64,000 nucleotides of DNA from Conexibacter woesei Iso977N (lineage in GTDB: Bacteria; Actinomycetota; Thermoleophilia; Solirubrobacterales; Solirubrobacteraceae): contig NZ_AUKG01000003.1 of assembly GCF_000424625.1 (NCBI RefSeq), positions 434,001-498,000 on the forward strand, read 5' to 3'. The notes beneath the pieces are model-generated. The model was not told where the DNA came from, searched no databases, and saw only the letters and a program-made list of their open reading frames with translations. The position numbers and the translations under genes are program-made. This document shows positions 16,481-64,000 of this stretch, piece after piece. The stretch's first letter is position 1. Each line of letters begins with the position of its first letter.

Positions 16481-16531
16481 ATGAACGCGAGCCGGGATCG
16501 CGGGTGCATCATGTCGGTCTATGAGCGTTGA
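16481..16531 (+). CDS. Leader ORF overlapping the ThDP-enzyme start
   Basis: A 16-codon ORF ([16 protein letters not shown]) with a near-ideal GGAGG 6 nt before its ATG. Its stop (16529-16531) lies 8 nt inside the next gene, whose own ATG (16521) has no SD. The arrangement fits translational coupling. It is not enriched in Leu/Ile/Val, so a classic ilv-type attenuator peptide is unlikely. Confidence 0.5.
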
Positions 16532-18167
16532 GACCGATACCGAGACCCGCGTCCACGGCGGGCGGCTGATCGCGCGGCGGCTGAAGGCGCACGGCGTCAC
16601 GAAGCTGTTCACGCTGAGCGGCGGCCACATCTTCTCGATCTACGACGGCTGCCGGGCCGAGGGGATCGACATCGTCGACACGCGCCACGAGCAGGCCGCG
16701 ACGTTCGCCGCCGAGGGCTGGGCGAAGGTGACGCGCACGCCGGGTGTCGCGGCGCTGACCGCGGGGCCGGGCGTGACCAACGGGATGAGCGCGATCGCGT
16801 CGGCCCAGCAGAGCGCCTCGCCGATCATGGTGCTCGGCGGCCGCGCGCCGGCGCTGCGCTGGGGGATGGGCTCGCTGCAGGAGATCGACCACGTCCCGTT
16901 CGTCGCGCCGCTGACGAAGCTGGCGAAGACCGCGGGGTCGCCGGACGAGATCGCCGGGCTGGTCGACGAGGCGCTGGCGACGTCGATGGCGCCGCACTCG
17001 GGCCCGACGTTCCTGGACTTCCCGATGGACCACGTGTTCAGCGAGGGCAGCGAGGGCGGGGCCGACGGTGTCCTGCACGACGTCCTGGCCGAGCCGATCG
17101 CGCCGGGCGACGTTGACAAGGTGATCGCCTTGCTCGACGCCGCGGAGCGCCCGGTGATCATGGCGGGCACGAACCTCTACTGGGGCCGCGGCGAGCACGC
17201 GCTGCGGGCGCTGGCCGAGGCGCGTGGGATCCCGGTCTACCTCAACGGCCAGGCGCGCGGCTGCCTGCCCGCCGACCACGACCTCTTCTTCTCGCGCGCG
17301 CGAGGCGACGGCCTGAAGGGCGCGGACCTCGCGCTGGTCATCGGCGTCCCGATGGACTTCCGGCTCGGCTTCGGGGGCTCGTTCGGCGAGGACACCAAGT
17401 TGGTCGTCATCGACCGCGCCGAGCCGGTCCGGGCGCACCCGCGGCCGGTCGAGGTCTCGCTGTACGGCGGGATCGACGCGACGCTGCGCGCTTTGGTCGG
17501 CGATGGCTCGGGGGCGGCGCGCACCACCGACTGGGTCGCGCACCTGCGCGGCAAGGAGACCGAGAAGCGCGAGGCCGAGCGCGCAGAGCTCGACGACGGC
17601 CGCTCGCCGCTGCACCCGATGCGCCTGTACCGCGAGCTCGGCGAGGTCCTGGACCGCAACGCGATCGTGATCGGCGACGGCGGCGACTTCGTCTCCTACG
17701 CCGGGCGCGTGATCGACACCTACGAGCCGGGCTGCTGGCTCGATCCGGGCCCGTTCGGCTGCCTCGGCACCGGCCCGGGCTACGCGCTGGCCGCCAAGCT
17801 CGCGCACCCGGACCGTCAGGTCGTCCTGCTCGTCGGCGACGGCGCGTTCGGGTTCTCCGGCATGGAGTTCGACACGCTCGCGCGCCACGGCGTCAACGTC
17901 GTCGCGGTGATGGGCAACAACGGGATCTGGGCGCTGGAGAAGCACCCGATGGAGTTCCTGTACGGGTACTCGGTCGCCGCCGAGCTGACGCCGGAGACAC
18001 GCTACGACCAGATGGTCGAGGCGCTCGGCGGCCACGGCGAGCTGGTCCGGACGCCGGAGGACGTCAGGCCGGCGATCGCGCGGGCGTTCGAGAGCGGCAG
18101 GCCGGCGCTCGTGAACGTGCTCACGGACCCCGACGTCGTCTACCCGCGCAAGTCGAACCTGGCCTAA
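16521..18167 (+). CDS. Thiamine diphosphate enzyme of the acetolactate synthase family
   Basis: A 548-aa ThDP-dependent enzyme. The N-terminal PYR domain has [19 protein letters not shown] and the catalytic Glu in [18 protein letters not shown] central domain follows, then the C-terminal PP domain with [15 protein letters not shown] ... VMGNNGIW, the ThDP/Mg motif. The family joins or cleaves 2-oxoacids (acetolactate synthase, 2-hydroxyacyl-CoA lyase, oxalyl-CoA decarboxylase). [11 protein letters not shown] is closer to the lyase-like branch, and no ilvN or ilvC lies adjacent, so a biosynthetic ALS role is not assured. The start overlaps a leader ORF. Confidence 0.8.
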
Positions 18168-18189
18168 GGCGTACTCGCGCGTACTGCTT

Positions 18190-18680
18190 TGGTGCGGTGT
18201 CCCTCCGATCGGCGGGGCACCGTGCCTAGGCAAGCCCGTTCGACTCCTTTCCGGCAGGAAGGATCGGCGGTCTTTCCGGTGCGTCTACACCCAGAAAGTC
18301 GGAAGCCGCCCAAACGGGCGGCTTCCAAACTCGGCCCCGACAGGACGGGCAGGGGTACGTGCCATGCGGGGGCCTGATTGTGTTGGCCCGAGCGGCGGGA
18401 GGCGCCGATTCGATGCGGCTTCGCTCGGACCTTTGCGTCGGGACGGCGAACGAACGAGCCTGTTCGGCACGTACATCCCGTTGCCCGACAGCAGGCAGTA
18501 TCTGACGGGTCCGGAGGGGCGGCAATCAGACACCCGTCCAGGCAGGTTCCGAGAAGTGGGGATGCGAGGTACAACCCCACGGCGGCAGTAACGGGAGGTG
18601 GGGCTTCGGCCTTGCTCGACCCAAGTCGCTGAAGCGGCCGGGGCGGGCGTGTTCCTCAGCCCTCGCCCGTCCCGCCGCAT
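18190..18680 (+). ncRNA. Candidate large structured noncoding RNA
   Basis: This 490-nt stretch lies between two convergent genes and holds no convincing ORF on either strand. GC is about 60-65% by hand count of two lines, against coding flanks above 70%. Helices seen: 18191-18199/18218-18226 (9 bp, two G-U), 18301-18311/18316-18326 (11 bp, perfect), 18346-18350/18483-18487 plus 18352-18354/18477-18479 plus 18355-18363/18466-18474 (17 bp long-range), 18370-18374/18385-18389, 18390-18394/18422-18426, 18504-18510/18532-18538, 18556-18561/18575-18580, a cUUCGg hairpin at 18600-18613, and a terminal 13-bp hairpin at 18634-18678. The G-U pairs and UUCG loop favour the + strand. RNase P, tmRNA and SRP motifs were sought and not found. 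Confidence 0.6.
18634..18678 (+). terminator. Strong GC hairpin ending the candidate RNA
   Basis: CGGGCG (18644-18649) pairs with CGCCCG (18664-18669). The stem is extended by GGG/CCC and GCGG/CCGC on either side of a one-base bulge and a small internal mismatch. There is no U-run. It could also serve the convergent minus gene, which stops at 18721. Confidence 0.5.
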
Positions 18681-18720
18681 CAAGTGGTGACGCGTGCTCG
18701 GGGGAGCAGCATCACGAGCA

Positions 18721-19650
18721 TCACGACGCGGTGGCGGCGGCCCGGTCCAGCGCCGCCCCGCGGAGGATGTCGTGCTCGGAGACCTCGACCTCGGAGAGGT
18801 CGAAGGTGCGCATCGCCTCGATCAGGAGGATGACGCCGGCGACGATCGCCTCGGCGCGGTCGGGGTGCAGGCCGGTGACGTGGCGGCGCTCTTCGGTGGT
18901 GAGCTGGGCGAGTCGGGCCAGCAGCATCTCGGCCTGCGCGCGGAGGAGGCGGAAGCCGTGGACCTTCGCGGGGTCGTAGGGGTCGAGCTCCTGGAGGATC
19001 GCGGCACAGGACGTGGCGGTGCCGGCGACGGCGATGCCCTTGGAGACGCGGGCGCGCTCCGATGCGGGCACGGAGGTCGTGAAGATCTCGTGGGTCTCCT
19101 GCTGGAGGAGCTGGAGCTCTTCTGGTCTCGGCGGATCGCTCTTGAGGAAGCGCTCCGTCTGGCGCACGACGCCGGCCTGGGTGGAGACGTGGAAGTGGAC
19201 GCTTGGGCCCTGGCCGACGACCAGCTCGGTCGAGCCGCCGCCGACGTCGATGACGACGGTGGGCTCGTTGCCGGCGGGGCGGTCGGAGGTGGCGCCGAGG
19301 TAGGTGAGGCGCGCCTCCTCGTCGCCGGTGATCGTGCGGGCGTTGATGTTGTAGGTGTCGTTGAGGCGGGTGGTGAACTCGCTGCCGTTGCGCGCGTCGC
19401 GGACAGCGGAGGTCAGGACGCCGGTGACGGCGTCGACGTTGTTGTCGTCGATGACCGCGCGGTACTCCGCGACGGCCTTCTCGACGCGCGCCATCGCCTC
19501 GTCGGCGAGCAGGCCGCTGTGGTCGACGCCCTGGCCGAGGCGGGTGACGGTGGTCCGGCGGTCGATCTCGGCGCTGATCGCGCCGTCCTCGACGTCCGCG
19601 ATGTAGAGGCGGGTGGAATTGGTCCCGACGTCGATGACCGCGATGCGCAT
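18721..19650 (-). CDS. Exopolyphosphatase / pppGpp phosphohydrolase family
   Basis: A 309-aa Ppx/GppA protein of the actin-like ATPase superfamily. The phosphate-1 loop is VIDVGTNSTRLYIADV, the catalytic Glu lies in ITGDEEARLTYLGA, and the phosphate-2 loop is VVIDVGGGSTELVVG. GIAVAGTATSCAA follows. The length corresponds to the short form, without the HD domain. It releases phosphate from polyphosphate or the 5' phosphate of pppGpp, and the sequence does not decide which. It lies 13 bp downstream of the hydroxyacid dehydrogenase gene on the same strand. Confidence 0.9.
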   Translation of the reverse strand: MRIAVIDVGTNSTRLYIADVEDGAISAEIDRRTTVTRLGQGVDHSGLLADEAMARVEKAVAEYRAVIDDNNVDAVTGVLTSAVRDARNGSEFTTRLNDTYNINARTITGDEEARLTYLGATSDRPAGNEPTVVIDVGGGSTELVVGQGPSVHFHVSTQAGVVRQTERFLKSDPPRPEELQLLQQETHEIFTTSVPASERARVSKGIAVAGTATSCAAILQELDPYDPAKVHGFRLLRAQAEMLLARLAQLTTEERRHVTGLHPDRAEAIVAGVILLIEAMRTFDLSEVEVSEHDILRGAALDRAAATAS

Positions 19651-63899: not shown

Positions 63900-64000
63900 C
63901 GGTCAAGAGCGCCAGCGTCAAGCCCCGGCTCGCTGGCCGGCAACCCTCGTTCGCGGTGGGGTGCCCCGGGTGAAGACCAGGCCCGCGTGCCACGTGGCAC
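63900..64000 (+). promoter_or_regulatory. SAM-IV type S-adenosylmethionine riboswitch, truncated by window end
   Basis: The core matches the actinobacterial SAM-IV pattern: GGTCAAGAGCGCCAGCGTCA, then CCCCGGCTCGCTGGCCGGCA ACCCTC, GCGGTGGGGTGCCCCGGGTG, closed by GAAGACC pairing with the initial GGTC. A following hairpin, GTGCC-ACGT-GGCAC (63987-64000), would be P5. It should switch off a methionine or sulfur gene just beyond the right edge when SAM is abundant. Confidence 0.88.

What the first reader, a model, noticed from the sequence alone, without database searches (positions are those of the whole stretch)
18168..18720. Candidate undescribed ~490-nt structured RNA between convergent genes
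Seen: a 553-bp gap between two gene 3' ends, with lower GC than its flanks and no convincing ORF. It holds at least nine inverted repeats: a 17-bp long-range helix (18346-18363 with 18466-18487), a perfect 11-bp hairpin (18301-18326), a 9-bp helix with two G-U pairs, a cUUCGg tetraloop and a 13-bp terminal hairpin. Because both neighbours point into it, it cannot be a 5' leader of either. G-U pairs and the UUCG loop fit the + strand only. Hallmarks of RNase P (GAGGAAAGTCC), tmRNA and SRP RNA are absent on both strands. Inference: a stand-alone large ncRNA, possibly lineage-specific.
Basis: partly seen in the sequence, partly recalled or inferred. Interest (0 to 1): 0.78.

Follow-up and report, generated by a model that had tools for sequence, protein, structure and literature searches.

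The report
Unnamed conserved small RNA, opposite strand
The gap holds a gene for a roughly 200-letter non-coding RNA that is conserved across one order of soil actinobacteria and matches no catalogued RNA family; it is read from the opposite strand to the one first proposed, and its job is not yet known.

Summary
The 553-bp convergent gap contains a conserved structured RNA, but it is about 198 nt, not 490, and lies on the MINUS strand (about 18490 to 18293). Models find it in 112 of 232 genomes of the order and in no sampled genome outside it. Of 76 parsed loci, 72 lie beside the same exopolyphosphatase gene. Architecture: promoter-like sequence, hairpin P1, linker, hairpin P2 with unpaired CCUCCC, hairpin P3 with a nearly invariant C-rich loop, terminator hairpin. 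Helices covary (5 of 21 pairs on a MAFFT alignment; 17 of 21 on a model-fitted one). G-U cells outnumber A-C 125 to 7 on this strand; T-tails favour it in 62 loci against 7. In 7 of 76 loci, from four genera, the RNA is inverted, so it is an autonomous gene. No Rfam family matches at gathering score. Function is inferred: most likely a trans-acting small RNA using C-rich motifs like mycobacterial 6C/B11, but my test for ribosome-binding-site complementarity was not significant. Identity is secure by comparison; transcription and mechanism are untested.

The parts
18293..18490 (-). Inferred non-coding RNA, about 198 nt; 5' end near 18490, 3' end near 18293
   Evidence: Ends inferred from promoter-like sequence and terminator; 18291-18491 minus folds with z -4.27; model match G000:C3:452332-452435 minus = window 18332-18435
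18520..18525 (-). -35-like element TTGCCG
   Evidence: 17 nt upstream of the -10; best pair of this locus, reached by 3% of 100 shuffles; a strict consensus scan of the window finds no promoter
18497..18502 (-). -10-like element GATACT
   Evidence: several relatives carry TATACT or TATAGT there
18523..18539 (-). Conserved motif GGACGNNTGTYYGATTG overlapping the -35, possible transcription-factor site
   Evidence: Seen upstream of many f1 homologues; elsewhere in the genome it is little above its control, 23 places with up to 2 mismatches against 12
18436..18489 (-). P1: 5' hairpin GUCGGG...CCCGAC, variable in sequence
   Evidence: 52 nt before the linker: mean fold z -2.06 over 76 loci, 58 of 76 below -1; MFE of the window copy
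18430..18436 (-). Linker GCAAAGG, mostly CAUAGG in relatives (its last two bases open P2)
   Evidence: ATAGG in 67 of 83 aligned homologues
18385..18431 (-). P2: 10-bp covarying stem with an inner 4-bp GCCG/CGGC stem
   Evidence: 10-bp stem: all 250 cells paired in A2 (25 of 30 sequences), 5 of its 10 pairs changed on both sides; inner stem never varies in A2
18395..18405 (-). Unpaired GCGCCUCCCGC in P2
   Evidence: CCUCCC in 76 of 83, CGCCUCCCGC in 74 of 83
18333..18374 (-). P3: hairpin GGCCCC...GGGGCC
   Evidence: Outer helix: 5 of 5 pairs with both-sided changes in A3; none with both-sided changes and 95.2% of cells paired in A2
18341..18358 (-). P3 loop region GUACCCCUGCCCGUCCUG
   Evidence: Exact in 58 of 83; CCCCUGCCC in 75 of 83
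18301..18326 (-). Terminator hairpin
   Evidence: Best hairpin after P3 scores above all 20 shuffles in 72 of 74 scorable loci
18293..18300 (-). Short tail GACTTTCT after the terminator; weak in this genome, up to 7 T in a row in relatives (L012)
   Evidence: strict terminator scan of the window finds none
16521..18167 (+). Neighbour: acetolactate synthase family TPP enzyme
   Evidence: NF004516 884 bits, cut-off 587; three Pfam TPP domains
18721..19650 (-). Neighbour: Ppx/GppA exopolyphosphatase family protein
   Evidence: PF02541 180.7 bits; TIGR03706 exopolyphosphatase 226.2 bits, under its cut-off of 307

Best explanation
It is the gene of a stand-alone structured small RNA of about 198 nt on the minus strand, made from its own sigma-70-like promoter near 18497-18525 and ended by an intrinsic-type terminator at 18293-18326 (this identity: about 0.93). 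Most likely mechanism, inferred: the RNA works in trans and presents two conserved C-rich single-stranded segments, CCUCCC in P2 and ACCCCUGCCCG in P3, which pair with G-rich stretches of mRNAs such as ribosome-binding sites and so lower translation, as reported for 6C/B11 in mycobacteria. Shown by comparison: conservation, strand, helices, terminator, orientation independent of the neighbours. Inferred: transcription, exact ends, trans action, targets, sign of regulation.
For: blastn with the gap matches 35 of 61 genomes at E <= 1e-3, own genome included; model R2 112 of 232 genomes of the order. Covariation: 5 of 21 pairs changed on both sides on the MAFFT alignment A2, reached by 0 of 500 shuffles; 17 of 21 on A3, still 17 of 21 by the pair table without its three opposite-strand rows. 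Strand: 125 G-U against 7 A-C cells on A3, which is fitted to a model of this strand; on the unfitted A2, 24 against 2, all 22 cells in P2 being G-U. Terminator tail: 62 loci favour minus, 7 plus, 5 ties. Promoter-like pairs reached by at most 5% of shuffles in 34 of 76 loci, 3.8 expected. Inversion in 7 of 76 loci, genera g11, g42, g25, g8. C-rich motifs nearly invariant. 6C/B11 as precedent: passages of PMC10470900.
Against: The target test did not reach significance: 6-mers complementary to the P3 loop occur in 20 of 222 start regions against 12.2 expected, but 23.5% of shuffled loops do as well and the reversed loop gives 21 against 12.4; P2 segment 18 against 10.4, 9% of shuffles. No 12-nt perfect complement of the P3 loop lies elsewhere in 7 of 8 genomes; in G017 there are two further places. 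Conservation of paired as well as unpaired stretches (55 invariant columns of 108 in A2) is stronger than antisense pairing needs. In A2 one of five covariation measures, further pair types, is reached by 28 of 500 shuffles. The window copy itself has a weak promoter and tail: strict scan 0 and 0. The RNA was not found in 120 of 232 genomes of the order, 51 of 112 good-quality ones. No expression data.
Confidence: 0.4

Rival explanations
1. The RNA is chiefly a protein partner: it binds and sequesters or guides a conserved protein (RNA polymerase, as 6S or Ms1 do, a ribosome-associated factor, or an RNA-binding regulator), and the invariant P2/P3 segments are the protein-binding site.
For: 55 invariant columns of 108 in A2, stems included (35 when all 30 rows are kept); one match per genome in 106 of 112 genomes; length near that of 6S (recalled); 6S itself found by RF00013 in 0 of 5 tested f1/f2 genomes.
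Against: The fold is a row of hairpins, not a 6S-like rod with a central bubble (shape of 6S recalled); the f3 genome G287 has both a 6S match and this RNA; not found in 120 of 232 genomes of the order.
Confidence: 0.3
2. It is a 3'-UTR element: the processed, stable end of the exopolyphosphatase mRNA (or, where inverted, of the acetolactate synthase mRNA), acting as a terminator or a 3'-derived small RNA.
For: In the usual orientation the P3 loop lies 146-396 nt after the ppx match on the same strand, with two loci at 766 and 773 nt; it carries a terminator.
Against: Promoter-like sequence upstream in many loci; inversion in 7 of 76 loci puts it behind the other gene; conservation far beyond a terminator.
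Confidence: 0.15
3. A plus-strand ~490-nt RNA as first proposed.
For: The plus strand also folds better than shuffles, z -3.35, with a lower MFE than the minus strand (-281.8 against -270.8).
Against: G-U against A-C cells and T-tails favour minus; 10 of 30 loci have a gap of only 212-296 nt.
Confidence: 0.03
4. The C-rich sequence is a short conserved reading frame.
For: The same 20 letters occur at the start of an unrelated zinc-ribbon-like reading frame (L144; reading mine), so the string is codable.
Against: Block spacing not in multiples of three; the ATG of ATGGCAC is AAG or otherwise in many homologues; compensatory helix changes.
Confidence: 0.02

Closest known systems
6C / B11 sRNA of mycobacteria
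   Same: Intergenic actinobacterial small RNA with conserved hairpins presenting cytosine-rich loops, reported to pair with ribosome-binding sites (PMC10470900, passages seen)
   Different: Our RNA is about 198 nt with three hairpins plus terminator; its C-rich segments are one internal loop and one apical loop; no Rfam family matches
Ms1 RNA (binds the RNA polymerase core, Actinobacteria)
   Same: Actinobacterial RNA in a conserved intergenic place (PMC9130861, abstract, outline and passages seen)
   Different: Ms1 is tied to a HAD hydrolase gene; ours to exopolyphosphatase and acetolactate synthase. The words Thermoleophil-, Solirubro-, ppx, gppA and exopolyphosphatase do not occur in that paper's main text
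6S RNA (RF00013)
   Same: Similar length (recalled), stand-alone gene
   Different: No RF00013 match at the element in six genomes; different fold; both coexist in G287

Membership tests
6C (Rfam family, name recalled; mechanism from PMC10470900) | Match to an Rfam model | tested here: not met
   No family at gathering score at the element in the window or in 20 loci; only weak matches to other families, all under gathering score, up to E 10 in 18068-18820 and, tRNAs apart, up to E 3 in five homologues
6C (Rfam family, name recalled; mechanism from PMC10470900) | Two C-rich unpaired loops | tested here: inconclusive
   Two conserved C-rich unpaired segments exist, but one is an internal loop
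6C (Rfam family, name recalled; mechanism from PMC10470900) | Pairs with ribosome-binding sites | tested here: inconclusive
   Weak enrichment in 222 crude start regions, not significant against shuffled or reversed controls
Ms1 | HAD-hydrolase synteny | tested here: not met
   Immediate neighbours are Ppx/GppA and acetolactate synthase
Ms1 | Binds RNA polymerase core | not testable with these tools
   Needs immunoprecipitation
6S RNA | Match to RF00013 | tested here: not met
   No match in G000, G001, G025, G027, G046; G287 matches on another contig
RNase P RNA | Match to RF00010 at this place | tested here: not met
   Single genomic match at C2:709411-709741
Intergenic bacterial small RNA (general kind) | Conserved structure, terminator, no coding signal | tested here: met
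Intergenic bacterial small RNA (general kind) | Own promoter | tested here: inconclusive
   34 of 76 loci reached by at most 5% of shuffles; strict scan of the window copy finds none
Intergenic bacterial small RNA (general kind) | A transcript | not testable with these tools
   No expression data at hand

The most novel reading that the evidence does not exclude
An order-specific ribonucleoprotein RNA of Solirubrobacterales, a functional counterpart of 6S/Ms1 or a ribosome-directed RNA, whose invariant P2 internal loop and P3 loop form a single binding site for one conserved protein or ribosomal partner.
Probability: 0.22. Interest if true: 0.8.

Novelty: new member of a known kind. Interest (0 to 1): 0.55.

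Why it matters
The searches listed in the report turned up no described small RNA of this order of Thermoleophilia among the papers they listed. A conserved RNA with a clear strand, likely ends and invariant motifs gives a direct handle for northern blots, pull-downs and deletion in cultured strains whose genomes hold it (for instance Conexibacter arvalis DSM 23288 or Solirubrobacter soli DSM 22325), and would be a new Rfam family.

Tried and rejected
Plus-strand RNA: disfavoured by wobble and terminator asymmetry. RNase P, 6S, any Rfam family: no match at the element (some of the sub-threshold matches overlap the element, each far under its gathering score). Ms1 by synteny: rejected. LexA control of the promoter: next to lexA in five genomes, the own one included, lies CGAACACATGTTCG (four) or CGAACACACGTTCG (one), unlike GGACGNNTGTYYGA, so not supported; the sixth lexA locus fetched was not examined. 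Single conserved antisense target by a 12-nt perfect match: none in 7 of 8 genomes. Ribosome-binding-site statistic: not significant. P1-P3 long-range pairing: 26 of 49 loci with GGCACG (7.5 expected), 4 of 27 with variants (1.4 expected), two of these four from one genus; left open. Micromonospora hit L144: 17.2 bits, no ppx or als nearby, reads as a protein start. A phage carrier: the exact 20-mer is absent from viral contigs. Divergent copy beside ppx in lineages without hits: 14 ppx loci (12 from the order, 2 from elsewhere in the class) gave nothing better than E 0.27 with filters off; in four (L194, L195, L200, L201) ppx and als still converge, three with a gap of about 30 nt or less and one with about 165 nt. 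One of these 14 genomes, G006, has a weak match to R2 (E 0.001) some 6 kb from ppx, not followed up.

Rows dropped: 5 of 30 sequences (L022, L024, L028, L029, L030) were left out of A2 and model R1, mainly because MAFFT misaligned P3 in some of them. Three opposite-strand matches in A3 (L016, L014, L036) were dropped before the counts and before model R2; still contains them. Seven of 83 homologous loci were not parsed by my motif anchor, so per-locus counts use 76, and terminator counts 74 (two have too little sequence after P3).

Full report
WHAT WAS CLAIMED AND WHAT IS THERE. The gap 18168-18720 lies between a plus-strand acetolactate-synthase-type TPP enzyme and a minus-strand Ppx/GppA protein. 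It is less GC-rich than most of its flanks, holds 13 inverted-repeat pairs at my settings and folds better than shuffles on both strands. Rfam 15 has no match there at gathering score; up to E 10 there are nine matches, the best with 20.6 bits for a family whose gathering score is 102. In 20 homologous loci only four tRNAs reach gathering score. In five homologues and L144 up to E 3, two tRNAs do, and the other seven matches, some overlapping the element, stay far below.

CONSERVATION. The gap, used as a blastn query, matches 35 of 61 genomes at E <= 1e-3, own genome included. The conserved unit is shorter than the gap: 10 of 30 loci have gaps of only 212-296 nt (ends extended from tblastn matches). 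A covariance model from 25 sequences (R1) finds it in 83 of 399 genomes drawn from the class and 3 of 296 from the phylum, all three of the own family. A second model from 83 sequences (R2) finds it in 112 of 232 genomes of the order, 61 of 112 good-quality ones, 35 of 54 genera, and in 85 of 399 of the class. All these matches are in the window's own order (families f1, f2, f3); in searches of this size the tool's stricter filters lose some weak matches. An exact 20-letter scan of the genome-contig collection gave 65 stretches, mostly labelled Solirubrobacterales, Solirubrobacteraceae, Thermoleophilaceae, Conexibacter or Solirubrobacter, or only Actinobacteria/Actinomycetota; 64 of 65 lie within 2.5 kb of a ppx or als homologue. 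The exception, labelled Micromonospora, reads as the start of a zinc-ribbon-like protein. One labelled Bifidobacterium breve matches R2 with 76.1 bits and has the usual neighbours, so its label is probably wrong. The viral collection has none.

STRAND. (1) On the MAFFT alignment A2, helix cells include 24 G-U and 2 A-C read on the minus strand; in P2 all 22 are G-U. On A3 without its three opposite-strand rows the count is 125 to 7; A3 was fitted to a model of this strand and leans that way. (2) In the nine bases after the terminator hairpin T averages 3.8 on the minus strand, and the mirror count for the other strand is 1.6; 62 loci favour minus, 7 plus, 5 tie (a first count with shorter flanks gave 64 against 6). 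(3) Promoter-like sequence lies upstream in that direction: in 34 of 76 loci at most 5% of shuffles do as well, and in 67 of 76 the best -10 starts 43-70 nt before the linker, within an 80-nt search window. (4) The minus strand has the lower z, though the plus strand has the lower MFE. For the window copy alone promoter and tail are weak, and a strict scan finds neither; the case rests on the family.

STRUCTURE. Read 5' to 3': P1 hairpin, variable in sequence (mean fold z -2.06 over 76 loci); linker, mostly CAUAGG; P2, a 10-bp stem in which every cell of 25 sequences pairs and 5 pairs change on both sides, enclosing an inner GCCG/CGGC stem and an unpaired CCUCCC (76 of 83); a variable linker; P3, whose outer stem has both-sided changes at 5 of 5 pairs in A3 but at none in A2, and a loop region GUACCCCUGCCCGUCCUG (exact in 58 of 83); terminator hairpin, above all 20 shuffles in 72 of 74 loci. 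Over A3, 17 of 21 pairs change on both sides and 0 of 500 shuffles reach this; sliding the partner lowers the covariation score from 0.317 to at most 0.088 (three spurious rows of 86 included; the pair table, without them, still shows 17 of 21). On A2 four of five measures are reached by 0 of 500 shuffles and the fifth, further pair types, by 28. It may be a second conformation or a loop-loop contact; I do not rely on it.

GENE CONTEXT. Of 76 parsed loci 72 have ppx, 60 have the TPP enzyme and 56 have both in the fetched stretch. In 7 of 76 the RNA is inverted: four loci of genus g11 and one each of g42 and g25 relative to both neighbours, and one of g8 where only ppx is in the stretch; g42, g25 and g8 have uninverted members too. 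So the RNA is not bound to either neighbour as its 3' end. Of 14 ppx loci read in genomes without a match to R1, four still have convergent ppx and als, three of them with almost no gap and one with about 165 nt; the model finds nothing better than E 0.27 with filters off. The RNA was thus probably lost or moved there.

HOW IT MAY WORK. A terminator, promoter-like sequence, lack of a coding signal and invariant C-rich unpaired segments suggest a trans-acting small RNA. The nearest described behaviour is that of 6C/B11 of mycobacteria, whose cytosine-rich loops pair with ribosome-binding sites (PMC10470900, passages seen). I tested this on 222 crudely predicted start regions from 464 kb of this genome (400 kb plus the window): 20 against 12.2 expected for the P3 loop and 18 against 10.4 for the P2 segment, but 23.5% and 9% of shuffled segments do as well, and the reversed P3 loop gives 21 against 12.4. 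The gene finder chose starts partly by Shine-Dalgarno-like sequence, which inflates such counts, including the anti-Shine-Dalgarno control (28 against 3.6). The mechanism therefore stays an inference at about 0.4; binding of one conserved protein is a serious rival.

LITERATURE. Seven searches of open PMC papers listed no paper on a small RNA of this order among the 8 to 15 shown per search; titles and starts of abstracts were seen, except for PMC9130861 (abstract, outline, passages) and PMC10470900 (passages). Subscription journals and supplementary files were not searched.

VERDICT.

Noticed in passing
L207 (G287:C48:14327-14481 minus): A 6S RNA match (RF00013, 55.6 bits, gathering 46.4) beside an ORF that looks like aspartyl-tRNA synthetase (by eye) in a genome of this actinobacterial order, though 6S is described as missing from Actinobacteria (PMC9130861 abstract). 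Contamination not excluded.
   Followed up: partly
window 18523-18539 minus; L103, L111, L116: Motif GGACGNNTGTYYGATTG: 23 places with up to 2 mismatches in the genome against 12 for the reversed control. Three by eye look promoter-like or lie at an ORF start: L111 (followed by a CATACT), L116 (start of a MerR-like ORF) and L103 (about 1.16 kb before a DnaK-like ORF, another ORF between). It is not the LexA box of this lineage.
   Followed up: partly
window 18552-18561 minus: CCCCACTTCT or a near form recurs upstream of the RNA promoter in several homologues (by eye); role unknown.
   Followed up: no
window 63901-64000: SAM-IV riboswitch, 88.1 bits, cut by the window end.
   Followed up: no
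L082/L083 (G378) and L084/L085 (G204): Two matches to the RNA in one assembly (6 of 112 genomes have two); duplication, mixed assemblies or, for G224, a weak second match.
   Followed up: no
L163 (CAMCUD010000012.1): A record titled Bifidobacterium breve carries this RNA between homologues of ppx (58% identity) and als (70%); its title is probably wrong.
   Followed up: partly
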